The notes under the pieces were generated by a model. It was given only the letters and a program-made list of their open reading frames with translations. It searched no databases and had not been told where the DNA came from. Shown piece after piece: positions 8,371-59,271 of a stretch of DNA of 64,000 nucleotides. The stretch is from assembly GCF_018390635.1 (NCBI RefSeq), contig NZ_JAHBGE010000013.1, forward strand, positions 1 to 64,000, written 5' to 3'. Each line of letters begins with the position of its first letter. Positions within the stretch are counted from its first letter, which is position 1. The position numbers and the translations under genes are program-made. The stretch comes from Ancylobacter lacus. GTDB lineage: Bacteria > Pseudomonadota > Alphaproteobacteria > Rhizobiales > Xanthobacteraceae.

Positions 8371-9633
8371 ATGACCAAGCCTGTCGCTCCTTCCGCGCTC
8401 GACCTTGCCACGCCCATCGCGGCGCCTGCCGCCGTGCCCGGTGCGGACCTGCTCATCCGCAAGGGGACGCGCCATTTCATCCTTACCAATCTGGCGCTGT
8501 TCTCGGCCGGTTTCTCCACCTTCGCGCTGATTTATTGCGTCCAACCGCTGATGCCGCTGTTTTCGGCGGAGTTTGGCATCAGCCCGGCGCAGAGCAGCCT
8601 CGCGCTCTCCGCCACCACGGCCCTGCTGGCGGTTGCGATGCTTGTCGCCTCCGCCCTATCGGAGGTGGTGGGGCGCAAGCCGGTGATGGTGGCCTCGCTC
8701 ATTGCCTCGTCGCTGCTGATGATGGCCTGCCCCTTCGTGCGGGACTGGAACGATCTCGTCTGGCTGCGGGCGCTGTCGGGCATCACCTTCAGCGGGCTTC
8801 CCGCGGTGGCGATGGCCTATGTCGGGGAAGAGATGCACGAGGAGTCCGTCGGGCTGGCGATGGGGCTTTATATCGGCGGCTCGGGCCTCGGCGGGCTCGG
8901 CGGGCGTGCCATCGTCGGCGTATTGGCAGACTTTTTCTCTTGGCGGCACGGGCTGTTCGCCGTTGGCGCGGTGGGCGTGCTCTGCGGCCTTGTGCTGTGG
9001 TGGAGCCTGCCGGCCTCGCGGAATTTTCGCCGCGCCTCGCCCTCGCCACGGGTGATGCTGGCCGCCTTCCTCGCGCATCTCGGCGATGCCCGACAGCGGG
9101 CGCTGTTCCTGACCGGCTTTCTGCTGCTGGGCAGCTTCGTGTGTGTCTACAACTACACCGGCTACCGGCTGATGGCGGCGCCGTTCCATCTGCGTCAGAG
9201 CACGGTGAGCCTCGTTTTCGCGGTGTATCTCGTCGGTATCTTCGCCTCCGCCTATATCGGCGATCTCGGTAGCCGGATCGGCCGGGGGCCGGTGCTGTGC
9301 CTGTCGATGGGCCTGATGCTGGGGGGGACGCTGGTGACGCTGGTGCCAAGCCTGCCGGTCATCCTGCTGGGGCTCGCCGCGCTCACCTTCGGCTTCTTCG
9401 GCGCCCATTCGGTTGCCAGCAGCTGGGTGGGGGCCAATGCCAGCCACTCCAAGGCGCAGGCCTCCTCGCTTTACCTGTTCGCCTATTATCTCGGCTCCAG
9501 CGTCATCGGCACGTTGGGCGGGGTGTTCTGGGCGAAGGGGGCGTGGCCGGGTGTGGTGGGGCTACTGGCCGTGCTGCTGGCTATCGGCCTTGCCGGCGCC
9601 GCCTGGCTGGCGCGCTCGGCCCGGCCGGCCTAG
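8371..9633 (+). CDS. MFS transporter, YnfM-like
   Basis: A 420-residue major facilitator with twelve predicted membrane helices. It shows the loop 2-3 motif SEVVGRKPVM (GxxxDRxGRR-like) and a TM5 GGSGLGGLGGR segment. Divergent pairing with a BenM/YnfL-type LysR gene matches E. coli ynfM. Such proteins export small molecules such as arabinose or drugs; the substrate here is unknown. An in-frame ATG at 8320 would lie almost on the candidate operator, so the Met at 8371 is preferred, although neither start has a strong ribosome site. Confidence 0.85.
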   Translation: MTKPVAPSALDLATPIAAPAAVPGADLLIRKGTRHFILTNLALFSAGFSTFALIYCVQPLMPLFSAEFGISPAQSSLALSATTALLAVAMLVASALSEVVGRKPVMVASLIASSLLMMACPFVRDWNDLVWLRALSGITFSGLPAVAMAYVGEEMHEESVGLAMGLYIGGSGLGGLGGRAIVGVLADFFSWRHGLFAVGAVGVLCGLVLWWSLPASRNFRRASPSPRVMLAAFLAHLGDARQRALFLTGFLLLGSFVCVYNYTGYRLMAAPFHLRQSTVSLVFAVYLVGIFASAYIGDLGSRIGRGPVLCLSMGLMLGGTLVTLVPSLPVILLGLAALTFGFFGAHSVASSWVGANASHSKAQASSLYLFAYYLGSSVIGTLGGVFWAKGAWPGVVGLLAVLLAIGLAGAAWLARSARPA

Positions 9634-39865: not shown

Positions 39866-40861
39866 TCAACCCTTGATGAAGGCGAGCAGGTCCGGGTTGA
39901 TCACGTCGGCCTCGGTGGTGAGCATGCCGTGGGGGTAGCCCTTGTAGACCTTCAGCGTGCCGTTCTTCAGCAGCTTGACGGACAGCAGCGCCGAATCCGC
40001 GATCGGCACGATCTGGTCGTCGTCGCCGTGCATCACCAGCGTGGGAACCGAGATGGCCTTGAGGTCTTCGGTCTGGTCGGTCTCGGAGAAGGCCTTGATG
40101 CCCTCGTAATGGGCCTTGGCGCTGCCCATCATGCCCTGGCGCCACCAGTTCTGGATCACGCCGGGATACACCTTCGCGCCCTCGCGGTTGAAGCCGTAGA
40201 ACGGGCCGGTGGGGACATCGAGGAAGAACTGGGCGCGGTTGTCGGCGGTCGCCTTGCGGAAGCTGTCGAACACCTCCAGCGGCAGGCCGCCGGGATTGGA
40301 CTCGGTCTTGAGCATCAGCGGGGGAACCGCGGAAACCAGCACCGCCTTGGCGACGCGGCCGGCCGGCTCGCCATGCTTGGCCACATAGCGCGCGACTTCG
40401 CCGCCGCCGGTGGAATGGCCGATATGCACGGCGTTCTTCAGGTCGAGATGCTCCACCACCGCGAAGGCGTCGGCGGCGTAGTGGTCCATGTCGTGACCCT
40501 CGCTGACCTGCGCCGAACGGCCGTGGCCGCGGCGGTCATGGGCGACCACGCGGAAGCCGTTGAGGACGAAGAACATCATCTGGGCGTCCCAGTCGTCCGA
40601 CGACAGCGGCCAGCCGTGGTGGAACATGATGGGCTGGGCGTCCTTCGGGCCCCAGTCCTTGTAGAAGATGTCGACGCCGTCCTTGGTCGTGACGTAACCC
40701 ATGGTTTCGTTCCTTTCGGGTGGGGAGGTGGTGAGGGAAGACGAGGGGGTCTGCGCCGCCACCGGGAAGGGCAGGGCGGCGAGCATGCCGGCGCCGAGGC
40801 CGAGGGCCATGACGCTGCGCCGGTCGGGTCGAGCGGGGTCGAAGGTCGTGCGGTCGGCCAT
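39866..40861 (-). CDS. Tat-exported alpha/beta hydrolase, non-haem haloperoxidase-like
   Basis: 331 residues. The first 36 form a twin-arginine signal (PDRRSVMALGLGAGMLAALP, ending PVAAQ). The enzyme part (from about 54, MGYVTTKDGVDIFYKDWG) has the oxyanion HHGWPLS, nucleophile elbow GHSTGGG, Asp in MHGDDDQIV and His in GYPHGM, the catalytic triad of cofactor-free chloroperoxidases/perhydrolases. An internal ATG at 40702 has its own AAGGA site and would give the usual cytosolic 278-residue form, so two products are possible. Two OhrR-like operators lie 190-215 bp upstream, linking it to peroxide stress. Confidence 0.88.
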   Translation of the reverse strand: MADRTTFDPARPDRRSVMALGLGAGMLAALPFPVAAQTPSSSLTTSPPERNETMGYVTTKDGVDIFYKDWGPKDAQPIMFHHGWPLSSDDWDAQMMFFVLNGFRVVAHDRRGHGRSAQVSEGHDMDHYAADAFAVVEHLDLKNAVHIGHSTGGGEVARYVAKHGEPAGRVAKAVLVSAVPPLMLKTESNPGGLPLEVFDSFRKATADNRAQFFLDVPTGPFYGFNREGAKVYPGVIQNWWRQGMMGSAKAHYEGIKAFSETDQTEDLKAISVPTLVMHGDDDQIVPIADSALLSVKLLKNGTLKVYKGYPHGMLTTEADVINPDLLAFIKG

Positions 40862-46375: not shown

Positions 46376-47104
46376 TCAGCGCCCCAGATAGACGTCGACG
46401 ACGCCGGCATCCGCCCGGACCTTGTCCATCGGCCCTTCGAACAGGGTGCGCCCCTCATGCAGCACCGTGACCTTGTCGGCGATACGCTCGACGAAATCCA
46501 TGTCGTGCTCCACCACCACGATGGCGCGGTCGGGCCGGTTCAGCGCCCGCACCAGCGCGGCGGTGCGCGCGGTTTCCTCATCCGTCAGCCCGGCGACCGG
46601 CTCGTCCAGCATCAGCACGCGCGGGTCGGAGGCCAGCACCATGCCGATCTCGAGCCACTGCTTCTGGCCATGGCCCAGCTCGCCGGCGAGGCGGCCGGCC
46701 TGGTCGGCCAGTCCCACCGTCTCCAGCACCTCGCCGATGCGGTCCTCCAGCGCCGGGCCTTCGGGCCCGCGGCGGAAGCCGGTACCCGCGCCGATGGCGA
46801 TGTGCTGGCGCACGGTGAGGCCTTCGAACACGCTCGGCTTCTGGAACTTGCGGCGGATGCCGGCGCGGGCGATAGCGGCCTCGCTGCGGCCGGTGATGTC
46901 CTCGCGGCCATCGAACAGGACGCGGCCCTGCTTCGGCCGGGTGATGCCGGAGATGACGTCCAGCAGCGTGGTCTTGCCGGCGCCGTTCGGCCCGATCACC
47001 GCGCGCACCTCGCCATAGTCGATGGCGAGGGAGAGGTCGTCTATGGCGTGGAAGCTGCCGAACCGCACGGTCAGCCCATCCACCAGCAGCGCGGTGAGGC
47101 TCAT
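46376..47104 (-). CDS. urtD: Urea ABC transporter ATP-binding protein UrtD
   Basis: A 242-residue LivG-type ATPase: Walker A GPNGAGKTTLLD, Q-loop region, signature-like ELGHGQKQWLEIGM (a known variation of LSGGQ in UrtD proteins), Walker B VLMLDEPVAGL and VVEHDMDFV. The ATG overlaps the urtC stop by 4 bp. The LGHGQKQWLEIGM form separates it from general LivG proteins. Confidence 0.94.
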   Translation of the reverse strand: MSLTALLVDGLTVRFGSFHAIDDLSLAIDYGEVRAVIGPNGAGKTTLLDVISGITRPKQGRVLFDGREDITGRSEAAIARAGIRRKFQKPSVFEGLTVRQHIAIGAGTGFRRGPEGPALEDRIGEVLETVGLADQAGRLAGELGHGQKQWLEIGMVLASDPRVLMLDEPVAGLTDEETARTAALVRALNRPDRAIVVVEHDMDFVERIADKVTVLHEGRTLFEGPMDKVRADAGVVDVYLGR

Positions 47105-48198
47105 GGCCGGGCCTCCCCGACATCGGCGGCGAGCCGGCGCGGGCCCATGGGCCGCACCAGCCGCAGCCGGGCAAGGTCGATGAGCCCGTTCGGGAACACC
47201 AGCACCACCAGCACGATGAGACCGGACAGGATGAAGGGCCACACCTCCGGCGCGGCGAAGGACAGCCAGAACTTGATGGCGTTCACCAGCAGCGCCCCCA
47301 CCACCGCCCCCACCAGATGGCCGCGCCCGCCGATGGCGACCCACACCGCGATCTCGAGCGACAGTTCCGGCGAGAGCAGGCGCGGGTTGATGATGCCGAC
47401 CTGCGGCACGTAGAGCATGCCCGCCACCATTGCGATGAGCGCGGAGAGGCACCACACCGCGAGCTTCAGCCGCAGCGTCTCGTAGCCCAGTGTGCGCAGG
47501 CGGGTTTCGTCGTCGCGGGTCGCCAGCATCAGCGCGCCGAAGCGGCTGCCGACCAGCCAGCGGCAGCCGGCCAGCACCAGCGCCAGCACCAGCAGCGAGG
47601 CGACGGCGAGCCCGGTTATCATGCCGCTGGTGCCCATCGGCCAGCCGAACATCACGGAAAAGCCGGTCATGCCGTTATTTCCGCCGAAGCCGGTGTCGTT
47701 GCGGAACATCAGCAGCATCGCGACATAGACCAGCGCCTGGGTGATGATGGCGAAATAGACCCCGCCGACCCGCGAGCGGAACGAGACGTAGCCGAACAGC
47801 CCGGCGACCAGCGTGGTGAGCACCACCGCCACCGCCAGCGCATAGGGAAAGGCGCCGAAGCCGGCCCAGTAGAACGGGAAGTCCTTCCACCCCATGAACT
47901 GCAGGAAGTCCGGCACCGTGCCGGTGACCTCGAAGGAGTGTTTGAGCAGGTACATCGCCACGACATAGCCGCCGAGCGCGAAGAACAGCCCGTGGCCGAG
48001 CGAGAGAATGCCGAGATAGCCCCAGATCAGGTCCAGCGAGAGCGCCAGCACCGCGAAGGCGGCGAGCTGGCCGATCGCGTTGGCGAGATAGCGCGACATC
48101 TCCAGCGGCGTGCCGGCCAGCAGCGGCAGGGCGGCGGCGGTGGCCAGCAGCAGCGCGAGCACGGCGAGGAAGGGGCGGTCGGCGGTCCAGCGGGTCAT
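47101..48198 (-). CDS. urtC: Urea ABC transporter permease UrtC
   Basis: A 365-residue LivM-type permease with about ten helices. Family segments are LSLDLIWGYLGILSLGHGLFFALGGY, FAIITQALVYVAMLLMF, NDTGFGGNNGMTGF (UrtC-specific) and GGRGHLVGAVVGALLVN. Start and stop overlap urtB and urtD by 4 bp (ATGA), so the three are translated as a coupled set. Confidence 0.94.
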   Translation of the reverse strand: MTRWTADRPFLAVLALLLATAAALPLLAGTPLEMSRYLANAIGQLAAFAVLALSLDLIWGYLGILSLGHGLFFALGGYVVAMYLLKHSFEVTGTVPDFLQFMGWKDFPFYWAGFGAFPYALAVAVVLTTLVAGLFGYVSFRSRVGGVYFAIITQALVYVAMLLMFRNDTGFGGNNGMTGFSVMFGWPMGTSGMITGLAVASLLVLALVLAGCRWLVGSRFGALMLATRDDETRLRTLGYETLRLKLAVWCLSALIAMVAGMLYVPQVGIINPRLLSPELSLEIAVWVAIGGRGHLVGAVVGALLVNAIKFWLSFAAPEVWPFILSGLIVLVVLVFPNGLIDLARLRLVRPMGPRRLAADVGEARP

Positions 48199-49808
48199 TT
48201 GCGGCGCCCCTTCACGGCGAACAGCCCTTCGGGCCGCCATTGCAGGAAGGCGATGATCATCAGCAGCACGATGACCTTCGCCGCCACGGCGCCCCACAGC
48301 GGCTCGATGAGCACGTTGATCTGGCCGATGCCCAGCGCGGCCACCACCGTTCCGGCGATGGTGCCGACCCCGCCGAGCACCACCACCATGAAGCTGTCGA
48401 TGATGAAGTTCTGCCCCATCTGCGGGTTCACGCTGTAGATCGGCGACAGCGCCAGCCCGGCGAGGCCGGCCAGCCCCGAGCCGAGGCCGAAGGCCATCAT
48501 GTCGACCCGGCGGGTGGGAATGCCGATGCAGGCGGCCATGTCGCGGTTCTGGGTCACGGCGCGGATGTTGAGGCCGAGCGGGGTCTTGCGCACCGTCGCC
48601 CAGGTGACCAGCAGCGTGACGGCGGCGAACAGGATCGCGAACATGCGGTTCCAGGTGAAGATGAAGTCGCCGATCACCGGCACCCCGCCGGAGACGTAGA
48701 ACGGCGTCTCGAACTGAAGGTTCTGGGTGCCGAACACGACCCGCACCGTGTTCACCAGGAACAGGCTCACCGCCCAGGTGGCGAGCAGGCTCATCAGCGG
48801 GCGGCGGTAGAGGTGGCGCAGCAGCAGCGCCTCCAGCGCGATTCCGATGCCCGCCGTCACCAGGAAGGCGACGGGGATGGCGAGAACGAGATACCAGTCG
48901 AGCAGCGCCGGCGCCGCCTGCCGCAGCCCCTGCTGCACCAGCCACGTCACATAGGCGCCGATCATGATCAGCTCGCCCTGGGCGAGGTTGATGACGCCCA
49001 TCAGGCCGAAGATGATGGCGAGGCCGATCGCGGCCATGAACAGGATGCTGGCGAAGCTGAGCCCGTTATAGAGCGTGGCCAGCGCGTCGCCGAGGGCGAT
49101 GCCGCGCCGGATGGTGGCGAGACCGGCGTCCACCGCCTGCCGGAAGGCGGGGTCGGCGGCATAGGCGGGGTCCTTCGCCAGCGCCTCGACCTGGGTGAGC
49201 GCGCGCCGGCTCGGATGTTCGGCGATGCGGCCGATGGCGCGGATGCGGGCGGCGGGGTCGGCGGCGTTGAGGGCGGCGGTCTGCGCCAGCGTCTCGATGC
49301 GCGTCCTGAGGCCGGGATCGGTCTCGCCCTGCGCGGCGGCTTCCAGCAGGCCCTCGGGAAGGGCGGCGGGCCGGCGCTCCAGCGTGGCGAGCGCGGCGGT
49401 CCGGGTGGCGGGATCGGCCGCGCTGCGCAGCGCCAGGGCGGCGTCGGCCTGCTCGAACACCGCGCGGTTCTTCAGGCTCAGCACCGGGGTGCGGGCGTCC
49501 GGCGCGGGGGCTCGCGGAGCCCTGGTCACAGCATCGGTGCCGGTTGCCGCCAGCACGGCGCCGGTGTCGTCGCAGGCGAGCGTCTTGTCGAGCGCCGCCC
49601 GGGCGAGCGGCGCGGCCCAGCCGATCTCCTCGGGCGTTCCGCTCGCCGCGAGGGTGGAGAGGGCCGCCGCGGCCTCGCCCATCTGCCCGGCATTGCCGCA
49701 GAGCTTCTCGACGAGAGCGGCGCGGGCAGCCGGCTCCGCGCCGGCCGCACAGGCCGGAGCGGCGATCAGCAGGCCCGCGATCAGCAGGGGGAGGCGCCAG
49801 AGCGTCAT
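48195..49808 (-). CDS. urtB: Urea ABC transporter permease UrtB
   Basis: 537 residues. A signal peptide and an alanine-rich periplasmic HEAT-like domain (about 20-235) precede the LivH-type permease (about 240-530: YNGLSFASILFMAAIGLAIIFGLMGVINLAQGELIMIGAY in it). This long N-terminal extension is normal for UrtB and absent from branched-chain LivH. It ends GRRK, overlapping urtC. Confidence 0.94.
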   Translation of the reverse strand: MTLWRLPLLIAGLLIAAPACAAGAEPAARAALVEKLCGNAGQMGEAAAALSTLAASGTPEEIGWAAPLARAALDKTLACDDTGAVLAATGTDAVTRAPRAPAPDARTPVLSLKNRAVFEQADAALALRSAADPATRTAALATLERRPAALPEGLLEAAAQGETDPGLRTRIETLAQTAALNAADPAARIRAIGRIAEHPSRRALTQVEALAKDPAYAADPAFRQAVDAGLATIRRGIALGDALATLYNGLSFASILFMAAIGLAIIFGLMGVINLAQGELIMIGAYVTWLVQQGLRQAAPALLDWYLVLAIPVAFLVTAGIGIALEALLLRHLYRRPLMSLLATWAVSLFLVNTVRVVFGTQNLQFETPFYVSGGVPVIGDFIFTWNRMFAILFAAVTLLVTWATVRKTPLGLNIRAVTQNRDMAACIGIPTRRVDMMAFGLGSGLAGLAGLALSPIYSVNPQMGQNFIIDSFMVVVLGGVGTIAGTVVAALGIGQINVLIEPLWGAVAAKVIVLLMIIAFLQWRPEGLFAVKGRRK

Positions 49809-49876
49809 GTCGGGATCAAGACGGCCGCCCCCAGCGAGGACGGCCGCCCCTCATGCGGGGAGGGAAGGGTGCGGGC

Positions 49877-51127
49877 TCAGCCATAGGGGCTGAAGGGCAC
49901 CGGCTTCGGCGTGTCCTTGGACTGCCACAGGATGTCGAAGCCCTGCTTGTCGTTGACCGAGCCGATGAACACGCCGCGGGCGACGTAGTTGTTCTCGCCG
50001 GTCATCGAGATCTTGTAGCCCGACGGGCAGTCGAAGGAGAGGCCGGCAAACGCCTTGGACACCTCCGGCACGTCGAACGAGCCGGCCTTGGCCGCCGCCA
50101 TCGCCCAGAGGTGCACGGAGTCATAGGCCGAGACCATCGGGTCGATGGCGACGTCGCCCTTGAAGGGCACGTTCTTGGCCTTCACATAGTCCGCCCAGTT
50201 CTTCAGGAAGGCGACGTTGGCCGGGCCCTTGGCGTTCTGGAGATAGGCCCAGCAGTTGAGGTGGCCCACCAGCTTGGAGGTGTCGAGACCTTCGAGGTCG
50301 GCTTCCACCATGTCGAGGCCGAGCACCGGGATGTCGGTCGCCTTGATGCCCTGATTGGCGAATTCGCGCATGAAATCGGGGATGGAGTTGCCCACCACGG
50401 TGAGGATCACCACCGGCTGGCCGCCGCCCTGGTCGGCGAAGGCGCGGATCTGGTTCACCAGCGTCTGGAAGTTGGAGAAGCCGAAGGGGACATATTCCTC
50501 CTTCCACGCGCTCTCCGGAATGCCCTTGGACTTGAAGTAACCCTTGAGCTGCTTGTTGATGGTGCGCGGCCACACATAGTCCGAGCCGAGCATGAAGAAG
50601 CGCTTGGCGGAGACGCCTTCCTCGCCCATCAGGTAATCCACCGCCGGCAGCACCGAGCTGGCCGGGGGCGAGTTCACATAGACGACGTTCTTGGAGTTCT
50701 CGTCGCCCTCGAAGTGCAGGGGATAGTAGAGCAGGCCGTTCTCCTGCTCGACCACCGGCAGCACGGTCTTGCGCGACACCGAGGTCCAGCAGCCGAACAG
50801 CGCCGCCACCTTCTCCTGCTGCAGCATCTGCTTGGCGGACTGGGCGTAGAGCGGCCAGTCGGAGGCGGGATCGGACACCAGCACGTCGATGGTGCGGGCG
50901 TTGACGCCACCCTTGGCGTTGATCTCGTCGGCGGCCATCTTCACAACATAGTTCAGCCGGCCTTCGAGATTGGCCATGGTGCCGGAGGACGAGAACAGGC
51001 ACCCGAGCTTGACCGGACCCGCCGCCTGCGCGCTGCGCAGAATGGCCGGCATGCCGATCGGAGATGCCAGCCCGGCGGCGGCGAGACCGCTGGCCTGCAG
51101 GAAGGAACGCCGCGAAAACTGAGCCAT
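49877..51127 (-). CDS. urtA: Urea ABC transporter substrate-binding protein UrtA
   Basis: 416 residues with a twin-arginine signal (SRRSFLQASGLAAAG) and a periplasmic type-I binding protein. Family marks are VKLGCLFSSSGTMANLEG, FGCWTSVSRKTVLPVVEQENGLLYYPLHFEG and GSDYVWPRTINKQ, which together are specific to UrtA rather than amino-acid-binding LivJ. The Met at 51127 has GAGG upstream. It is the first gene of urtABCDE-fmdA. The close link to a formamidase suggests amide as well as urea uptake. Such operons are usually nitrogen-controlled; I did not find a clear sigma-54 site. Confidence 0.94.
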   Translation of the reverse strand: MAQFSRRSFLQASGLAAAGLASPIGMPAILRSAQAAGPVKLGCLFSSSGTMANLEGRLNYVVKMAADEINAKGGVNARTIDVLVSDPASDWPLYAQSAKQMLQQEKVAALFGCWTSVSRKTVLPVVEQENGLLYYPLHFEGDENSKNVVYVNSPPASSVLPAVDYLMGEEGVSAKRFFMLGSDYVWPRTINKQLKGYFKSKGIPESAWKEEYVPFGFSNFQTLVNQIRAFADQGGGQPVVILTVVGNSIPDFMREFANQGIKATDIPVLGLDMVEADLEGLDTSKLVGHLNCWAYLQNAKGPANVAFLKNWADYVKAKNVPFKGDVAIDPMVSAYDSVHLWAMAAAKAGSFDVPEVSKAFAGLSFDCPSGYKISMTGENNYVARGVFIGSVNDKQGFDILWQSKDTPKPVPFSPYG

Positions 51128-51535
51128 GGACCACCTCAACGGTTCGATGATGGTCGCAATTCTGTTGCGCAGGCCCTCGCGCGCAACTTCATATAATGTT
51201 CAGCCCTGCCCAAAGCGGCGCCAAGCCGCCGCCGCCCGCCGGCATTGTGTCAGGATTGCCAATGACACCGCCGCGCCGGGACGCACCCCGTTACGTCCGC
51301 GCCCCGGATCCGGGCGGCTCGCGTATCGGAACGGGCGATGTTGCCCTGGGATAAATCCCATTCACCCCGGCGGGAACTGATCTATAGTGATGCCCATAAA
51401 AATCGCACGCTTTTGCGATGTGCGGAGCGCGGCCACCGCACGTCCCGCCTCTTCCGCTTGCGCGTGACGCGCGGGTCGCCGAGGGGTTGTCCCGGCCGCG
51501 GGGCCTGATCCGTCAACGACTGCCGAGGGCGAGCC
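51128..51535. promoter_or_regulatory. Divergent promoter gap with an inverted repeat
   Basis: The gap lies between urtA and a small HTH gene. ATCGCA-CGCTTT-TGCGAT at 51402-51419 is a perfect 6-bp inverted repeat about 120 bp before the HTH gene. An A/T-rich CATATAATG stretch near 51190 may belong to a promoter. Nothing else is evident. Confidence 0.35.
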
Positions 51536-51916
51536 ATGCGACGTTCGCAGTTCACTGACAGCGAGATCCTCCACCTGATCCGCGAAGCCGATGCGGGGGT
51601 GCCGGTCGGCGAGATCTGCCGCACCGCGCAGGTGTCGCTGCGCACCTTCTACCGCTGGCGCCGCCGCTTCGGCGGGCTGAGCGCGCCGGCGGTGATGCAG
51701 ATGAAGGAGCTCGAAGCCGAGAACCGCCGTCTGCGCGCGATGATCGACAATCTCTCCGCCCGGCTGAAGGCGCCCCCGCCCGGGGAACTGCCGCACCTGC
51801 CGGAGCGCCATGGCGCCGGCACTCTCGGCCAGCCGGAGCGTGCCTCGCTGATCGCGGCGGAGCGCTGCGGCGGCGCGGTGGTGGGCCGCTTCGCCTCGGT
51901 GCGGATCGGGCGCTGA
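51536..51916 (+). CDS. Solo transposase OrfA-like HTH protein
   Basis: 126 residues. Residues 1-55 match the IS3-family OrfA/Tnp_8 HTH (RRSQFTDSEILHLIREADAGVPVGEICRTAQVSLRTFYRWRRRFGG within them). A leucine-zipper-like helix follows (MQMKELEAENRRLRAMIDNLSARL), then an unrelated C-terminal tail of about 45 residues. No OrfB catalytic gene, frameshift window or terminal repeats are nearby. It is either a relic or, more likely given the intact frame and added tail, a DNA-binding protein derived from a transposase. It ends 28 bp from the convergent pip gene. Confidence 0.75.
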   Translation: MRRSQFTDSEILHLIREADAGVPVGEICRTAQVSLRTFYRWRRRFGGLSAPAVMQMKELEAENRRLRAMIDNLSARLKAPPPGELPHLPERHGAGTLGQPERASLIAAERCGGAVVGRFASVRIGR

Positions 51917-51944: not shown

Positions 51945-52847
51945 TCAGTCATGCTGCCGGAGGAAGGCGGAAACCGCCGCGAGGCAGGCCACCTTCTCCT
52001 CCACATGGGGCATGTGGCTGGAATCGGCAAAGAGCTTCCAGGTGCAGTCCGGCACGCGCTCGCGATAGGGGCGCACCACCTCCGGCGTCGCCTCGTCATG
52101 GGCGCCGGAGATCAGCAGCGTCGGCGCCGCGATGAGGTGGAGCCGGTCCTCGATGGTCCAGTCCTTCATCGTGCCGATGACGTGGAACTCGGTTGGCCCG
52201 TTCATGTGGCGGTAGACCGTGTTGTCCTCGTCCATCGCGGCGAAGGTGCGCGCCACCTCCGCCGGCCAGGGCGAGACCCGGCAGACATGGCGATCGTAGA
52301 ACACGCGGGACGCCGCGATGTAGTCGGGATGGGTCAGGGTGCCGGCGGCCTCATGCGCCAGCAGGGTCGCCTGCACCTCGGCGGGCAGATCGCGGCGCAG
52401 CCGGTTGGCCTCCGCCACCCAGGTGTGCATGTTGGCCGGGGAATTGGCGATGACCAGTGCCTTGAGCCCTGCCGGCCGGCGCACGGCGTGCTCGGCGCCC
52501 AGCATGCCGCCCCAGGACTGGCCGAGAAAGGCGTAGCGGCCGGAGATGCCGAGATGGGCGAGCAGGTTGTCAAGTTCAGCGAGGAACAGCTCGACCGTCC
52601 AGAAATCCGCGCCCTTTTCCGGCAGATGAGTCGAGCGGCCATTGCCGAGCTGGTCGTAATGGATGACCACGCGGCCATCCAGCGCGGCGATGTCCCTGAA
52701 CGAATCGACATAGTCGTGGGTGCAGCCCGGCCCGCCATGGGCGACCACCAGCGGCAGCCGCTCGCCCGTCAGCGTGCCCGTCACGCGGTACCATGTCCGG
52801 TAGTCGCGGAACGGGGCATGGCCTTCCAGCGTGTCGATGGCACTCAC
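51945..52847 (-). CDS. pip: Proline iminopeptidase-family hydrolase
   Basis: 300 residues from a GTG at 52847 with GAGGAGA upstream. The alpha/beta-hydrolase fold shows the oxyanion HGGPG (37-41), nucleophile Ser111 (GQSWGG), Asp in [10 protein letters not shown] and His in SSHMPHVEE. The S33 family removes N-terminal proline or other residues, or cleaves small amides. A perfect lux box is centred 73 bp upstream, and the LuxR solo gene follows it on the same strand. In plant-associated bacteria pip is the standard target of OryR/PipR-type regulators. Confidence 0.92.
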
Positions 52848-52912
52848 GCGCAGTCTCCTCGGCGGGGATCGGGAATGCCGGGAGAATAGGAAGGCAACGG
52901 CCGCCGCGTCAG

Positions 52913-52928
52913 CTATCACAACTGATAG
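52913..52928. promoter_or_regulatory. lux box upstream of pip
   Basis: CTATCA-CAAC-TGATAG is a perfect inverted repeat with a 4-bp centre in the pip promoter, the size and symmetry of lux boxes. The same arms recur at 53792-53807. It is inferred to be bound by the LuxR solo encoded at 52963-53733. Confidence 0.75.
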
Positions 52929-52962
52929 GACCGTCGCCGTTCCCGCGCCCCGGGCGGGCGCG

Positions 52963-53733
52963 TCAGTCCAGCGGTCCGTCCAGCAGGTGCAGCCGGGCCG
53001 CGAGAACGGCGGCGTGCATGCGGTTGCGCGCGCCGAGCTTGCGGGTGGCGGCGTTGAGGTGCATCACCACCGTGGGTACCGAGCGGTCGATGAGGCGGGA
53101 GATTTCCTTGGCGGAGAGCCCGTCCGCCGAATGGCGCAGGCATTCGCGCTCCCGGGCGGTGAGCCGCGCCGGCCCGGCGGTCCGCCGCACCTCGCTGAGC
53201 GAGCCGGCCGCCTCGCGCTGGAAGATGTGGGCGGCCAGCCCGACCTCGGCGAGGCACAGACGGGCCTCGCGCTCACACCGCCCGGCCTCGCCGCTGCGGG
53301 TGCCGGTGACGGTGGCGTAGTCGCCCCCCGGCATATGGATGGGCACGGTGACGCCGGCGGTGAGGCCGCGCTCGGCCAGGAAATGCGCCACCGGGGCGCT
53401 TTCCTCGGTGAGGAAGGCGCGGATCAGCGTCTCCGCCTTGGGATCGTAGTTCCAGAAGAACGGCGCGGTGGTGCGCACCGCGACCCGCTGCACCGGGTCG
53501 AGCCGGGCATAGCCATGGCCGGACCAGTAGTCGCGCATGGTCTCGTCGATGTTCCGCAGCTCCAGCACGGCGGGCAGCATCATGCGGCCGTCGAGCCCGT
53601 AGCGGGTGAGGGTGTAGTCGTAGATCAGGGTGTCGAAGCCGTAGTCGCGCATCACGCCGTACAGCCGGTCGATATGCTCGGAAAGCGTCGCCCCGCTGCG
53701 CAGCCGCTGCTCGATCGTGGTGACGTCCGGCAT
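52963..53733 (-). CDS. LuxR solo of the plant-associated (PAB) subfamily
   Basis: 256 residues: autoinducer-binding domain (about 15-165) and LuxR HTH (about 190-250: [47 protein letters not shown]). Against TraR numbering, the conserved Asp70-Pro71 are D79-P80 and Trp85 is W94. The position of Trp57 is Met (M66) and of Tyr61 is Trp (W70). This W57M/Y61W pair marks OryR, XccR, PsoR, NesR and PipR, which answer plant-derived compounds rather than AHLs. No luxI is near. The neighbours are pip and a peptide ABC transporter, and lux boxes flank the gene. Confidence 0.93.
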
Positions 53734-53791
53734 CGCCCTTGTCCCTGTGGTCGCCTGCGGGCACGCCGGAGGCCAGCCCGCGGCGGGAACC

Positions 53792-53807
53792 CTATCACTT
53801 CTGATAG
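53792..53807. promoter_or_regulatory. lux box between luxR and the ABC transporter operon
   Basis: CTATCA-CTTC-TGATAG is a perfect inverted repeat identical in its arms to the box before pip. It is centred 66 bp upstream of luxR and 249 bp upstream of the first transporter gene, so it may serve luxR autoregulation, the divergent operon, or both. Confidence 0.75.
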
Positions 53808-54048
53808 CTGGCGGGCACCGGCAATTCCGCTGAAAATTAAGCGTGCATAAGACTTGGGCAGCCCTCGCGCGGCTGGCGTCACTTTCGGCCCACTATAGGG
53901 AAGACAATCCGGCATGCTGCTGCGGCCCGCCTCGTTTCGTACCACCGAACAGCGTCGGTGTGCGGGCATGCTCGACTTGCCGGCCTGGCCACGTGCGGGA
54001 AAATCGGCGCCGTTCGTCCATTTTCCTCTCCGCCGCCCGGGCTGACCC

Positions 54049-54987
54049 ATGCACCGTTACCGTTTCATCCTGACGCGCCCGCTGCAGTTTCTGCCGGTGG
54101 TGCTTGGCGTCAGCCTCATCACCTTCGTGCTGGTGCGGCTCATTCCCGGCGATCCCGCGCGGGTGCTGCTCGGCGCCCGCGCCACCCCCACCGCCATCGC
54201 CAATATCCGCGCCCAATACGGGCTCGATGAGCCGATCTGGCTGCAATACCTCTACTTTCTGCGCAACCTCGCCCATGGCGAGATGGGCACCTCGATCGTG
54301 TTCCGCATCGACGTGCTCGACCTCATCGTCACCCGGATCGAGCCGACCGTCGCCCTCGTGCTGGCGAGCGTGCTGCTCTCGGTGCTGATCGCGGTGCCGC
54401 TGGCGGCGCTGGCGGCGCGCAACCGGGGGCGGCCGGTCGACCATCTCGTGCGCATCGTCTCCACCTTCGGCATCGGCTTTCCCCCCTTCTGGCTGGGACT
54501 GATGCTGATCCTGTTCCTCGCCGTGCAGGTGCCGCTGTTCCCGGTTTCCGGCTATGGCACCAGCGTGGGTGAGAAGCTGGCCCATCTCGTCCTGCCCGCG
54601 CTCACCGTGGCGCTGTCGCTCTCCACCGTGCTGCTGCGCTCGCTGCGGGCGGCGATGATCGAGGGGCTGAAATCGGACGTCGCCACCGCCGCCCGTGCGC
54701 GCGGCATGCCGGAAGGGGTCGTGTTCTGGCGCCACGTTCTGCCCAATGCGGTGGCGCCGACCATCAACCTGCTGGCGGTCAATGTCGGCTGGCTGATCGG
54801 CAGCACCGTCGTGGTCGAGAGCGTGTTTGCCCTGCCGGGTATGGGGCAGCTGCTGGTGCGGGCAATTTTCTCCCGTGATTACATGGTGGTACAGGCTATC
54901 GCCATGGTCTTCGCCTGCGCCACCGTGCTGGTGAACCTCGCCGCCGACATCGCGACCGTGGCGGTCGACCCGCGGGTGAAGCTGTGA
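54049..54987 (+). CDS. Peptide-type ABC transporter permease (DppB-like)
   Basis: 312 residues, six helices, opening LTRPLQFLPVVLGVSLITFVLVRLIPGDP-like as in DppB/GsiC (MHRYRFILTRP start). The EAA-type loop SDVATAARARGMPEGVVFWRHVLPNA is intact. It is the first gene of a four-gene operon divergent from the LuxR solo; the next gene's GTG overlaps its TGA. The leader of about 240 bp holds no other evident gene. Confidence 0.92.
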   Translation: MHRYRFILTRPLQFLPVVLGVSLITFVLVRLIPGDPARVLLGARATPTAIANIRAQYGLDEPIWLQYLYFLRNLAHGEMGTSIVFRIDVLDLIVTRIEPTVALVLASVLLSVLIAVPLAALAARNRGRPVDHLVRIVSTFGIGFPPFWLGLMLILFLAVQVPLFPVSGYGTSVGEKLAHLVLPALTVALSLSTVLLRSLRAAMIEGLKSDVATAARARGMPEGVVFWRHVLPNAVAPTINLLAVNVGWLIGSTVVVESVFALPGMGQLLVRAIFSRDYMVVQAIAMVFACATVLVNLAADIATVAVDPRVKL

Positions 54988-55808
54988 GCGCCGCGATGCT
55001 GCACACCCGGCGTCCCGCCGCGTTGACGGCGGGGCTCGCCATCCTCGCCCTGTTCGTGCTGGCGGCGCTGCTCGCCAACCTCGTCGCGCCCTATGACCCG
55101 ATCGCGCAGGACGGGGCCGCCCGGCTGGTGGCGCTGAGCTGGGCCCACCCCTTCGGCACCGATAATTTCGGCCGCGACATTCTCTCGCGGGTGATCCACG
55201 GCGCCCGGGTCGACCTGCAGATGGCGCTGATCGGCGTGTTCTTCCCCTTCGTCATCGGCACCGTCATCGGCTCGCTGGCGGGCTTTGCCGGCGGGGTGGT
55301 GGACGCGGTGCTGATGCGGCTGATCGACATCATCCTGGCCTTTCCCTTCCTGGTGCTGATGCTCTCCATCATCGCCATCCTCGGGCCGGGATTGACGAGC
55401 TTTTACATAGCGATGGCGCTGGTCGGCTGGGTTTCCTACGCCCGGCTGGTGCGGGCGCAGATCCTGGTGCTGAAGAGCGCGGACTATGCGGTGGCGGCGG
55501 CGAGCCTCGGCTTTTCCCGCCCGCGCATCCTGTTCCGCCACCTGCTGCCCAACGCGATCGCCGGCTCGCTGGTGTTCTCGATGTCGGATGCGGTGCTGGT
55601 GCTGCTGTCGGGCGCGGCGATCAGCTATCTCGGGCTCGGCGTGCAGCCTCCGGTTGCGGAGTGGGGTGTGATGGTTGCGGAGGGCCAGCCCTTCGTCACC
55701 CAGGCGTGGTGGATCACGCTGTTCCCCGGCCTTGCCATCGTCTTGCTGGCGTTCGGTTTTTCCATGCTCGGCGATGCGCTGGGCGAGCTGATGGGGGTGC
55801 ACGAATGA
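54984..55808 (+). CDS. Peptide-type ABC transporter permease (DppC-like)
   Basis: 274 residues starting at a GTG that overlaps the previous stop. It has the DppC/GsiD opening (PYDPIAQDGAARLVALSWAHPFGTDNFGRDILSRVIHGARVDL in its first loop, in pieces), a SADYAVAAASLGFSRPRILFRHLLPNA EAA loop and six helices. It pairs with the DppB-like permease to form the membrane channel. Confidence 0.92.
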   Translation: MSAAMLHTRRPAALTAGLAILALFVLAALLANLVAPYDPIAQDGAARLVALSWAHPFGTDNFGRDILSRVIHGARVDLQMALIGVFFPFVIGTVIGSLAGFAGGVVDAVLMRLIDIILAFPFLVLMLSIIAILGPGLTSFYIAMALVGWVSYARLVRAQILVLKSADYAVAAASLGFSRPRILFRHLLPNAIAGSLVFSMSDAVLVLLSGAAISYLGLGVQPPVAEWGVMVAEGQPFVTQAWWITLFPGLAIVLLAFGFSMLGDALGELMGVHE

Positions 55809-57580
55809 GCGCCCCGCTGCTCTCGATCCGCGACCTCGACGTCGTCGCCCGCAGCCGGGAAGGCGACCGCCCCTTGCTGGAAGGCATCTCGCTCGACCTC
55901 GCCCGCGGCGAGGTGCTGGGCCTCGTCGGGGAGAGCGGCTCGGGCAAGAGCCTGCTGTGCCGCACCATCGTCGGGCTGATGCCGTCGCCCGCGCTGGTGC
56001 GGACGGGTGGAAAAATTCTGCTGAAAGATCAGGACATTGCCGGTGCCGATCCTGCCAGCCTGCGCCGGCTGCGGGGCGCCGAGATCGGCATGATCTTCCA
56101 GAACCCCTCCAGCCATCTCGACCCGGTGATGCGGATCGGCGACCAGATCGTGGAGGGGATCGCGTTCTATCGCGGCCTCGGCCGGGCGGCGGCGCGGGAG
56201 GCGGCGCTGGAGATCATGGCGCAGGTGGGCTTCACCGACCCGCCGCGCCAGTTTTCCAGCTATCCCCATGAGTTCTCAGGCGGAATGCGGCAGCGGGCGA
56301 TGATCGCCATCGCGCTCGGCTGCGACCCCGAGCTGCTGATCGCGGATGAGCCCACCACCGCGCTCGATGTCACGATCCAGGCCCAGATCCTGAGACTTCT
56401 CATGGAGTTGCGGGCGAAGCGGGGGCTTTCCATCATCCTCATAACCCACGATCTCGGGGTGGTGGCGCAGACCTGCGACCGCATCGCGGTGATGCGGCAG
56501 GGCCGGGTGGTGGAGGTGGGGGAGAAGCGGGCGCTGCTGCGGGCGCCGCAGGCCGCCTATACCCGCAGCCTGATCGCCAGCCACCCCTCCATGCCGGTGG
56601 AGGATGAGTGCGGTGAGGTGGACGATGTGTCCGATCACCCTGTCGCGGCGACCGATGTGGCCGGCGTGGCCGGGACGCCGGCGCCGGCCGCCGCTCCCGC
56701 GACGCCGGGAAGGCCACGGCCGCTGGTCGAGATCGACGACCTCCGGGTCTGCTTTCCCGCCGGCGGGGGCCTGTTCTCCCGCCGCCGCAGCTTCGCCGCC
56801 GTCGACGGGGTGTCGCTGAGCATCCTGCCGGGCGAGACGGTGGGGGTGGTGGGGGAGAGCGGCTCGGGCAAGTCGACGCTGGCCCGCGCCATGCTGGGGC
56901 TGACCCCGCTCACCTCCGGCCATGTCGCCTTCGAGGGGGAGAGCCTGGCGCTGAAGCCGCGCGCCACCCGCGAGCGGCTGCACCGCCACGCCGCGATGGT
57001 GTTTCAGGACCCGTTCAACGCGCTGAACCCCCGCTTCACCATCGGCGAGACGCTGGCGGAGGTGCTGCGGGTGCAGGGCAAGGTGCCGGCGGCGCGGATT
57101 GCCGACCGGGTCGGGGAGCTGCTCGACCTCGTGGAGCTGGACCGCAGCTTCGCGACCCGCCGGCCCCGCTCGCTCAGCGGCGGCCAGTGCCAGCGCGCCG
57201 GCATCGCCCGGGCGCTGGCGGTGGAACCGCGCCTCATCGTCGCCGACGAATGCATCGCCGCGCTCGACGTCACCATCCAGGCCCAGATCGTCGCGCTGTT
57301 CCGCCGGCTGGTGCGGAGCATGGAGCTGACGCTGGTCTTCATCGCCCACGACCTCGCGGTGGTGCGCCACCTCTGCGCGCGGGTGGTGGTGATGCACCAC
57401 GGCCGGGTGGTGGAGGAGGGGCCGACCGAGGCCGTCTTCGCCCGGCCGCGGCAGGCCTACACCGCGAACCTTCTCGCCGCCGTGCCCAGCATCGACCCCG
57501 GGCAGAGCCTGTTCGGGCCCGACCCCCGCCTCACCGTCTCCCCCGTCCCCGGAACCTCCCGCCAAGGAACGAACCCATGA
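55805..57580 (+). CDS. Fused dual-domain peptide ABC transporter ATPase (DppD-DppF fusion)
   Basis: 591 residues, two ATPase domains in one chain. Domain 1 (about 5-265): Walker [12 protein letters not shown], signature [15 protein letters not shown], Walker [13 protein letters not shown]. Domain 2 (about 310-570): Walker [12 protein letters not shown], signature [15 protein letters not shown], Walker [14 protein letters not shown]-loop IAHDLAV. Fusions of this type (GsiA/YejF form) serve di- and oligopeptide importers. The linker (about 265-305) is alanine/proline-rich and includes a 28-bp DNA repeat shared with 10633-10660. Start overlaps the preceding permease by 4 bp and the end overlaps the binding-protein gene. 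Confidence 0.93.
56608..56635. repeat. Copy of the 10633 repeat inside the ATPase linker
   Basis: GTGCGGTGAGGTGGACGATG at 56608-56627 is identical to 10633-10652; after three mismatches CCGAT also matches. The copy encodes part of the non-conserved linker between the two ATPase domains, where an insertion would be tolerated. Confidence 0.6.
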
Positions 57581-59091
57581 AAAGGCACCTGAAGAAGGCC
57601 GGCCTCGCCGCCTTCGCCGCCCTGCTGTCGCTGTCCGCCAGCCACGCCGCCTTCGCCGCCGGCGTGCTCACCATCGGCCGCAACGAGGATTCCACCACCT
57701 TCGACCCCATCAAGTCGGCGCAGAACGTCGACAACTGGGTGTTCTCGAACGTGTTCGACGTGCTGGTGCGGGTGGACCGCAGCGGCTCCAAGCTGGTGCC
57801 CGGCCTCGCCGAGAGCTGGACGATCTCCGAGGACGGCCTGACCTACACCTTCAAGCTGCGCGACGCGACCTTCTCCGACGGTTCGCCGGTGACGGCGGAG
57901 GACGCCGCCTTCTCGCTGCTGCGCATCCGTGACGACAAGGGCTCGCTCTGGTCCGACAGCTTCAAGATCGTCGACACCGCGACCGCCGCCGACCCGAAGA
58001 CGCTGGTGGTGAAGCTGAAGAGCAAGTCGGTGCCCTTCCTCGCCATGATGGCGCTGCCCAACGTCTCGGTGCTGCCGAAGAAGGCGGTGGAGGCCGACCC
58101 CGACGGCTTCGCCCAGAAGCCGGTGGGCTCGGGCGCCTTCAGCGTGGCGGAATGGCGCCGCGGCGACCGCATCATCCTGAAGAAGAACCCGCGCTACTGG
58201 GACGCCGGGCATGTGAGCCTCGACGGTGTCGAGTGGATCGTCATTCCCGACGACAACACCCGCATGCTGAACGTGCAGACCGGGCAGATCGACGCCGCCA
58301 TCACCGTGCCGTTCTCGCGGGTGTCGGAGCTGAAGAAGGACCCGAACCTCGTGGTGGAGATGGACCCCTCGACCCGCGAGGACCACCTGCTCATCAACCA
58401 CGAGCACGGCGCGCTCGCCAAGAAGGAGGTTCGCGAGGCCCTCGATCTCGCGATCGACAAGAAGGCGATCGTCGACGCCGCCACCTTCGGCATCGGCGAG
58501 GTGGCCTATTCCTACATCCCCAAGGGCGCGCTTTACCACTACGCCCAGAACCTGCAGCGGCCCTATGACCCCGCCAAGGCCAGGGAGATGCTGAAGGCGG
58601 CCGGGGCGTCCGACCTCACGCTGAAATACATCGTCAATGCCGGCAAGGAGACCGACGAGCAGATCGCGGTGCTGATCCAGCAGCAGCTCGCCCAGGCCGG
58701 CGTCAAGGTCGACCTGCAGAAGGTCGATCCCAGCCAGAGCTGGGACATGCTGGTGAACGGCGACTACGACATCTCGGTGATGTACTGGACCAACGACATT
58801 CTCGACCCCGACCAGAAGACCACCTTCGTGCTCGGCCACGACACCAACCTCAACTACATGACCCGCTACAAGAACGAGGAGGTGAAGGCGCTGGTGGAGG
58901 CCGCCCGGCTGGAGACCGACCCGGCCAAGCGCGAGGCGATGTATGTGCAGCTCCAGAAGATGGCCAAGGGCGACGTCAACTGGATCGACCTCTATTACAG
59001 CCCCTACGTGAACGTGACGCGCAAGAACATCGAGGGCTTCTACCAGAACCCGCTCGGCCGCTTCTTCCTCGAGGACACCGTGAAGAACTGA
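57577..59091 (+). CDS. Peptide-type ABC transporter substrate-binding protein (SBP_bac_5)
   Basis: 504 residues with a signal peptide (about 1-28, ending AAFAAG) and the class-C binding fold: LTIGRNEDSTTFDPIKSAQN, LVPGLAESWTISEDGLTYTFKLR, FSDGSPVTAEDAAFSLLR, KPVGSGAFSVAEWRRGDRIILKKNPRYW. These proteins bind di/oligopeptides, glutathione, opines or similar compounds. The ATG overlaps the ATPase stop (ATGA). As part of the LuxR-solo locus it may capture a plant-derived amide or peptide. A strong terminator follows 41 bp later. Confidence 0.93.
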   Translation: MKRHLKKAGLAAFAALLSLSASHAAFAAGVLTIGRNEDSTTFDPIKSAQNVDNWVFSNVFDVLVRVDRSGSKLVPGLAESWTISEDGLTYTFKLRDATFSDGSPVTAEDAAFSLLRIRDDKGSLWSDSFKIVDTATAADPKTLVVKLKSKSVPFLAMMALPNVSVLPKKAVEADPDGFAQKPVGSGAFSVAEWRRGDRIILKKNPRYWDAGHVSLDGVEWIVIPDDNTRMLNVQTGQIDAAITVPFSRVSELKKDPNLVVEMDPSTREDHLLINHEHGALAKKEVREALDLAIDKKAIVDAATFGIGEVAYSYIPKGALYHYAQNLQRPYDPAKAREMLKAAGASDLTLKYIVNAGKETDEQIAVLIQQQLAQAGVKVDLQKVDPSQSWDMLVNGDYDISVMYWTNDILDPDQKTTFVLGHDTNLNYMTRYKNEEVKALVEAARLETDPAKREAMYVQLQKMAKGDVNWIDLYYSPYVNVTRKNIEGFYQNPLGRFFLEDTVKN

Positions 59092-59132
59092 GCCTCGCCG
59101 GAAACCGGCCCGAGCCTCGCCCGAGGCTGGCG

Positions 59133-59166
59133 CGCCCGTCCGGTCCCGCAAGGGGCCGGGCGGGCG
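59133..59166 (+). terminator. Strong hairpin ending the ABC transporter operon
   Basis: A 15-bp stem with two G-U pairs closes a GCAA tetraloop (59148-59151). It begins 41 bp after the binding-protein stop. A smaller perfect stem AGCCTCG/CGAGGCT lies just before it at 59113-59128. The T-run is short, so partial dependence on Rho is possible. Confidence 0.6.
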
Positions 59167-59271
59167 TTGCCGTTCTGGCAGGCCCGGCGGCCCGGCCGCG
59201 GCGGGATTGCGGCGCCGGGCCGGCTGGAGGAAACGGGTTGCCGCGCCCCGCGCCGCGCCTTGGCGACGGTG

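What the first reader, a model, noticed from the sequence alone, without database searches (positions are those of the whole stretch)
51945..59166. PipR/OryR-type plant-signal locus: PAB LuxR solo, pip and a peptide ABC importer
Seen: the LuxR protein has Met66 and Trp70 at the sites equal to TraR Trp57 and Tyr61, with Asp70, Pro71 and Trp85 kept; pip is adjacent; a four-gene peptide-type ABC operon is divergent and ends in a strong hairpin; no luxI is present. Known: the W57M/Y61W pair defines plant-associated LuxR solos, whose target is pip, and Pseudomonas PipR works with an ABC transporter to sense an ethanolamine-derived plant compound. Inference: this alphaproteobacterium imports a plant amide or peptide-like molecule through the transporter, and the LuxR solo reads it and raises pip.
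Basis: partly seen in the sequence, partly recalled or inferred. Interest (0 to 1): 0.87.

Follow-up and report, generated by a model that had tools for sequence, protein, structure and literature searches.

The report
PipR-type plant-signal locus lacking aapA
This looks like a real member of a known bacterial system that imports and senses a plant-type compound; one of its usual enzymes is missing here and sits instead in another operon that looks built to break down amino alcohols such as ethanolamine, which hints at what the imported compound is and what becomes of it.

Summary
Confirmed: window 51945-59091 holds pip, a LuxR solo with M and W at TraR positions 57/61, and a divergent importer whose binding protein is an AapF orthologue (PDB 7kz8). 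The LuxR groups with plant-type LuxRs, apart from LuxI-neighbouring ones. Two exact operator copies (CTATCA-N4-TGATAG) flank luxR; none other in 4.63 Mb. The genome has an AapA in another operon: DeoR, AapA, a kinase, and a PLP enzyme resembling ethanolamine-phosphate phospho-lyase. Of 30 genus genomes none has more than one AapA: 10 in the pip locus, 13 in that operon, 1 alone, 6 none. A like kinase heads an aapA-F importer run in three other genomes. Inference: the importer takes up an amino-alcohol amide, sensed by LuxR and cleaved by AapA/Pip. Ligand, regulation and plant role are unproven. New variant of a known kind.

The parts
51945..52847 (-). pip (PipA-type proline-iminopeptidase-family hydrolase); GTG start near 52847 is my reading, the longer ORF runs to 52919
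   Evidence: Pfam Abhydrolase_1; TIGR01250 above its cut-off; best PDB 7a6g 'Putative Proline iminopeptidase', 477 bits
52913..52928 (.). operator palindrome CTATCACAACTGATAG, centre 73 bp before the pip start codon
   Evidence: a like site before pip in 78 of 80 relatives with at most 2 mismatches
52963..53733 (-). LuxR solo, PipR/OryR/NesR type, M57/W61 in TraR numbering
53792..53807 (.). operator palindrome CTATCACTTCTGATAG in the luxR/importer divergent region
   Evidence: a like site before luxR in 80 of 80 relatives with at most 1 mismatch
53808..54048 (.). where aapA stands in relatives; the conserved leader beside the box is kept, the aapA gene is absent and no convincing remnant was found
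54049..54987 (+). importer permease 1 (AapB-like)
   Evidence: PF00528, PF19300
54984..55808 (+). importer permease 2 (AapC-like)
   Evidence: PF00528, PF12911
55805..57580 (+). importer ATPase, two domains in one gene (AapD+AapE-like); start is my reading of the ORF that begins at 55661
   Evidence: two PF00005 stretches and oligo_HPY
57574..59091 (+). substrate-binding protein, AapF orthologue; start approximate
   Evidence: PF00496; best PDB 7kz8/7kz9 AapF, 789 bits, next best 189
59129..59171 (+). strong GC hairpin after the importer operon, no T run

Best explanation
This is a PipR-type locus. The binding protein and ABC importer take up a small amide; the LuxR solo binds it in the cell and acts at the two palindromes flanking its own gene to raise pip and to control luxR and the importer; Pip hydrolyses the compound. 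In relatives a second hydrolase, AapA, heads the importer operon. Here that gene is gone, and its work is done in trans by the AapA of a separate operon (DeoR regulator, AapA, amino-alcohol kinase, PLP phospho-lyase). The imported compound is therefore most likely an amide of an amino alcohol, such as an ethanolamide, which is hydrolysed to the amino alcohol, phosphorylated, and split to aldehyde, ammonia and phosphate. Shown by sequence: gene content, clade, operators, absence of aapA at the locus, an AapA in the other operon, at most one AapA per genome in the genus. Inferred: ligand class, regulation, enzyme activities and the flow between the two operons.
For: Clade and signature: the 37 pip-locus LuxR rows form one group (100/100), all with M and W; the 6 LuxI-neighbouring rows have W and Y. 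AapF orthologue. Operators. aapA at the locus in 80 of 80 genome contigs relatives and in the 10 other genus genomes with the locus, six of which are also among the 80; absent here. Kinase and PLP enzyme: best solved relatives 6ef6; 5g4i and 6tor. Linkage: of 36 sampled genomes with AapA, 21 have the kinase at 1e-60 and 9 have it within 10 kb; the linked label needs 3 changes on a 46-row AapA tree. Three of the 9 have kinase-aapA-permease-permease-ATPase-ATPase-SBP in one run. Genus: 24 of 30 genomes have exactly one AapA, 6 none; 12 genomes without the locus have it in the catabolic cluster; G012 has the mirror image, aapA in the pip locus and a cluster without it. In 12 of 12 other genus clusters an ABC ATPase stands between SDR and DeoR; in the window genome the two are about 147 bp apart.
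Against: No ligand, regulation or activity was measured. The catabolic stretch L110 has no operator within 3 mismatches and has its own DeoR-type regulator. The four Pseudomonas-like genomes with W/W PipR loci lack this kinase (0 of 4), as do 5 of 13 order genomes whose AapA is not kinase-linked, so the downstream route is not universal. Of the 10 other pip-locus genomes in the genus only G012 was tested for the kinase, and it keeps an ABC ATPase in its cluster. Purified AapA of GM79 is an alanine aminopeptidase on the substrates tested (PMC4981722). That 6ef6 is a 1-amino-2-propanol kinase is recalled; its PDB name is aminoglycoside phosphotransferase. Shared ancestry is not removed from the counts.
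Confidence: 0.5

Rival explanations
1. Standard PipR signalling: the locus senses HEHEAA or a close plant compound only as a cue; the lack of aapA merely weakens signal turnover, and the AapA in the other operon is unrelated to it.
For: Nearly the same gene set and operator spacing as GM79 (PMC4981722); peptidase mutants of GM79 over-respond, so lack of aapA would raise sensitivity (PMC4981722); no operator at the catabolic cluster; the kinase is absent from the four Pseudomonas-like PipR genomes.
Against: Never more than one AapA per genome in the genus, the mirror-image arrangement in G012 and repeated AapA-kinase linkage suggest one shared metabolic job. The LuxR has M57, the HEHEAA-responsive PipR W57 (PMC7301841, passages).
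Confidence: 0.25
2. A peptide-scavenging locus: the importer brings in short peptides, Pip trims them and LuxR senses a peptide; AapA is an alanine aminopeptidase whose place beside the kinase reflects another substrate.
For: Binding protein of family SBP_bac_5; GM79 PipR answers Ser-His-Ser and protein hydrolysates, and PipA/AapA cleave aminoacyl naphthylamides (PMC4981722).
Against: The closest solved protein is AapF, solved with HEHEAA (ligand of 7kz9 named in a passage of PMC11168924); that its cavity excludes peptides with side chains is recalled, the paper is not held; kinase linkage.
Confidence: 0.15
3. A decaying locus: after losing aapA it no longer works and is drifting.
For: One gene of the conserved set is missing; the LuxR has a fairly long end branch (0.42).
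Against: The remaining genes are open, both operators are exact, permeases and binding protein are 82-86% identical to those of L002, L006 and L013, and the leader beside the lost gene is kept. A Rahnella victoriana plasmid has the same aapA-less layout.
Confidence: 0.07
4. The LuxR is an AHL receptor.
For: It has an Autoind_bind domain.
Against: Clade and signature; no luxI found (weak because uncontrolled).
Confidence: 0.03

Closest known systems
PipR system of Pseudomonas sp. GM79, pipA-pipR-aapABCDEF (PMC4981722: parts 1-3 of 6 read, i.e. abstract to discussion)
   Same: LuxR solo, pip downstream, divergent ABC importer with AapF orthologue, inverted repeat about 72 bp before the pip start
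   Different: aapA absent here; one two-domain ATPase gene instead of two; M57 instead of W57; different repeat sequence (CTATCA..TGATAG here; CTAG-containing repeats in the Pseudomonas-like and Klebsiella loci)
NesR of Sinorhizobium meliloti (table in PMC10134790, passages; locus L075 is from S. meliloti 4H41)
   Same: gene set and M/W signature; proteins 57-81% identical to L075, LuxR lowest
   Different: L075 keeps aapA; its LuxR falls in a separate Rhizobium-type group
PsrR of Kosakonia KO348 and PsaR2 of P. syringae pv. actinidiae (PMC7301841 and PMC10134790, passages)
   Same: The listed gene maps show pip and ABC-transporter genes beside luxR and name no second pip; PsrR has M/W
   Different: Gammaproteobacteria; no AapA in an amino-alcohol operon is mentioned in the passages seen
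Rahnella victoriana plasmid locus (L193)
   Same: luxR-pip with divergent importer and no aapA
   Different: 41% identical LuxR and two ATPase genes
Kinase/PLP-enzyme clusters, e.g. Agrobacterium fabrum C58 pAt (L190)
   Same: phosphotransferase, class III PLP enzyme, FabG-like SDR, PotD/PotF-type importer, DeoR regulator
   Different: pAt has an isochorismatase-family hydrolase and no AapA in the stretch read

Membership tests
PAB/PipR-OryR LuxR solos (class D) | Autoinducer-binding plus GerE domains | tested here: met
   the only PF03472 hit in the genome
PAB/PipR-OryR LuxR solos (class D) | no cognate luxI | tested here: inconclusive
   none found, but the search rang in no control genome
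PAB/PipR-OryR LuxR solos (class D) | W57M and Y61W with D70, P71, W85 kept | tested here: met
PAB/PipR-OryR LuxR solos (class D) | adjacent pip gene | tested here: met
PAB/PipR-OryR LuxR solos (class D) | groups with plant-type LuxRs and not with AHL receptors | tested here: met
   37 pip-locus rows one group 100/100 against 6 LuxI-neighbouring and 3 other rows; named OryR, PsoR and PipR proteins were not available as rows
PAB/PipR-OryR LuxR solos (class D) | inverted repeat in the pip promoter | tested here: met
PAB/PipR-OryR LuxR solos (class D) | responds to plant compounds and not to AHLs | not testable with these tools
   needs a reporter
GM79 Pip system | aapA at the head of the importer operon | tested here: not met
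   absent at the locus; an AapA lies on another contig
GM79 Pip system | AapF-type binding protein | tested here: met
   789 bits to 7kz8
GM79 Pip system | binding of HEHEAA | not testable with these tools
   contact residues are in papers not held
Canonical AHL receptor | W57 and Y61 | tested here: not met

The most novel reading that the evidence does not exclude
The PipR plant-signal system is at root the sensing and uptake arm of an amino-alcohol-amide salvage pathway. AapA is an amidase that frees an amino alcohol; it is found either in the PipR-controlled importer operon or in a DeoR-type kinase/phospho-lyase operon, and no genome of this genus keeps two. In this genome the PipR importer has taken the place of the catabolic operon's own ABC importer.
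Probability: 0.4. Interest if true: 0.75.

Novelty: new variant of a known kind. Interest (0 to 1): 0.56.

Why it matters
The ligands of most plant-type LuxR solos and the job of their pip enzymes are open questions. A repeated gene link between AapA (and, in three genomes, a whole aapA-F-like importer run) and an amino-alcohol-type kinase narrows the likely ligands to amino-alcohol amides. It offers a metabolic reason for the peptidases and makes both testable with purified proteins and simple gene removals in laboratory strains of soil and water bacteria.

Tried and rejected
Relocation of this locus's own aapA to contig C38: rejected, since the C38 AapA groups with catabolic-cluster AapAs and not with the genus's pip-locus AapAs. 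A remnant of aapA in 53808-54048: the best translated match (E 3e-4) lies in the conserved leader beside the box, the rest is at chance level. A wider LuxR regulon: 9 further sites at 2 mismatches; all sites together are 11 against 14 for the reversed-pattern control, so none is credited. Empty-site test: the DEAD helicase right of the locus is found in 26 of 30 genus genomes, but in the five stretches read nothing else of the window matched, and no window flank matched beside the other 10 genus pip loci, so an insertion could not be shown or dated. Recent transfer from Xaviernesmea: 71% LuxR identity is the highest, but the tree leaves the window on its own branch. A first AapA tree of the genus held one truncated row (L302) and was redone with trimmed rows. 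One search printed a Fisher value of 0.0003 that counted G027 as a catabolic-cluster genome; one search gives the mended value, 0.001. Binding-site comparison with AapF: the two PNAS papers are not held.

Caveats on counts: AapA cut-offs differ (1e-70 for order and genus, 1e-90 for class and phylum), and the class and phylum samples include more distant AapA-like proteins (56-60% identity). The figures (Fisher 5e-6 for co-occurrence, 2e-11 for linkage in the order sample) and (0.001 for exclusion in the genus) ignore shared ancestry. The relaxed operator pattern was not found in the more distant pip loci L181, L191, L193, L259 and the four Pseudomonas-like ones, so this operator form belongs to the closer group. 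In the random control, 42 of 1600 200-base chunks of the same loci held a site with at most one mismatch; chunks may overlap the sites themselves.

Full report
What is there. The LuxR gene (52963-53733, minus) encodes an autoinducer-binding and GerE-type protein, the only PF03472 hit in the genome. pip lies directly downstream and is closest to solved proline iminopeptidases. Divergently there are two permeases, a two-domain ATPase and a family-5 binding protein, with overlapping gene ends. The binding protein's best solved relative is AapF (7kz8/7kz9, 789 bits; the next hit has 189); 7kz9 holds HEHEAA (passage of PMC11168924).

Family. A tree of 46 LuxR proteins puts the 37 rows from pip loci on one side of a branch with 100/100 support. 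All 37 have M and W at TraR 57 and 61; the six LuxI-neighbouring rows have W and Y; of three further rows one has W/Y and two W/C. Long outgroup branches leave the order on the other side unsure. The window stands on its own branch in a 19-row group with eight Xaviernesmea/Rhizobium-type rows and ten genus rows. Named OryR, PsoR and PipR proteins were not available.

Operators. An inverted repeat in pip promoters is known for this family (PMC4981722; PMC7683790, passages). Here CTATCA-N4-TGATAG occurs exactly at 52913-52928 and 53792-53807 and nowhere else in 4,627,298 bases; no site has one mismatch, and the total of 11 sites with up to two mismatches is below the reversed-pattern control of 14. 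In 80 relatives a site with at most one mismatch precedes luxR in 80, and one with at most two precedes pip in 78. The pip site is centred 73 bp before the start codon; in GM79 it is 71.5 bp and is needed for PipR-dependent expression (PMC4981722). More distant pip loci do not show this form of the repeat. Direct control thus seems confined to this locus.

What is missing. In 80 of 80 relatives a second pip-like gene (aapA) heads the importer operon (one search kept the best 80 of 136 confirmed loci). The other 10 genus genomes that carry the locus, six of them also among the 80, have it too. The window keeps the leader next to the operator and the start of the first permease, but aapA is absent. 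The same lack is seen in a Rahnella victoriana plasmid, and the published maps of Kosakonia PsrR and of PsaR2 name no second pip (passages), so the layout itself is not unique.

Another AapA. The genome encodes an AapA (72% identical to that of A. aquaticus) on contig C38. It stands in a run SDR | DeoR-type regulator - AapA - phosphotransferase - class III PLP enzyme. The phosphotransferase's best solved relative is 6ef6 (272 bits; recalled as an aminopropanol kinase, named aminoglycoside phosphotransferase in the PDB). The PLP enzyme's are a bacterial phospholyase (5g4i, 349 bits) and ethanolamine-phosphate phospho-lyase (6tor, 289 bits). Trees show that this AapA belongs to the catabolic-cluster lineage and is not the genus's pip-locus copy moved away.

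The link recurs. AapA was found in 19 of 297 order genomes, 14 of 385 class genomes and 10 of 398 phylum genomes, 36 different genomes in all. The kinase was found in 14 of the 19 and in 7 of the 17 others. In 9 of the 36 the two lie within 10 kb: six clusters with DeoR, AapA, kinase and PLP enzyme, the window genome's among them, and three runs of kinase-aapA-permease-permease-ATPase-ATPase-binding protein without luxR or pip in the stretches read. The kinase of one of these runs also has 6ef6 as best solved relative (278 bits). The link needs three changes on the AapA tree. Isochorismatase- and nitrilase-type hydrolases, also amide-cutting families, stand beside the kinase in one cluster each (L172, L268).

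At most one AapA per genome in the genus. Of 30 genomes, 24 have exactly one AapA at 1e-70 and six none. Ten have it in the pip locus; twelve without a pip-type LuxR have it in the catabolic cluster; one (G027) has a lone pip-type copy; and the window genome has it in the cluster while its pip locus lacks it. G012 is the mirror image: aapA in the pip locus, and a DeoR-kinase-PLP cluster in which the kinase follows DeoR directly. In 12 of 12 other genus clusters an ABC ATPase lies between SDR and DeoR (by analogy with the annotated A. fabrum cluster it should belong to a Pot-type importer, which I did not classify); in the window genome SDR and DeoR are about 147 bp apart. The simplest reading is that the window genome runs one pathway from two operons: importer and Pip from this locus; AapA, kinase and lyase from the other. 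G012, however, keeps an ABC ATPase in its cluster as well as the pip importer.

Limits. Activities and ligand are inferred. The cluster has no LuxR operator. The Pseudomonas-like PipR genomes lack this kinase (0 of 4), so other routes must exist there. Only G012 among the genus's other pip-locus genomes was tested for the kinase. The two key PNAS papers on HEHEAA are not held. Literature searches: 3 of 3 papers listed; 13 of 13; 20 of 271; 25 of 528; 20 of 52; 15 of 15; 1 of 1. In the listings and in the passages I read I saw none that links AapA or the Pip system to an amino-alcohol kinase or phospho-lyase; this does not show that none exists.

Noticed in passing
window 51536-51916 (+): Small protein with an HTH_Tnp_1 domain between the urtA-like gene and pip; I did not look for the rest of an insertion element.
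   Followed up: no
window 46376-51139 (-): ORFs that look like a urea- or branched-chain-type ABC importer lie left of the locus; only the binding protein (49877-51139, Peripla_BP_5) was run against Pfam, the rest is read by eye.
   Followed up: no
window 39875-40771 (-): A hydrolase-like frame about 24% identical to AapA; not a Pip-locus gene.
   Followed up: no
L313 (G027) 8632-9579: A lone pip-type AapA with no luxR, pip or importer match in the 18 kb read, possibly a relic of a lost pip locus.
   Followed up: partly
L186, L259, L263: Two tandem AapA genes in front of the importer genes; L259 and L263 also have luxR and pip, L186 shows neither in the 15 kb read.
   Followed up: partly
L260, L262, L277: AapA with importer-like genes and no luxR or pip match in stretches of other class genomes.
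   Followed up: no
window 52963-53733 against relatives: LuxR diverges faster than the rest of the locus: about 41% identity to L191, L193 and L274 against 70-73% for the binding protein.
   Followed up: no
L190 (Agrobacterium fabrum C58 pAt): Kinase and PLP enzyme beside a PotD/PotF-type importer, an SDR, an isochorismatase-family hydrolase and a DeoR regulator, without AapA in the stretch read.
   Followed up: partly
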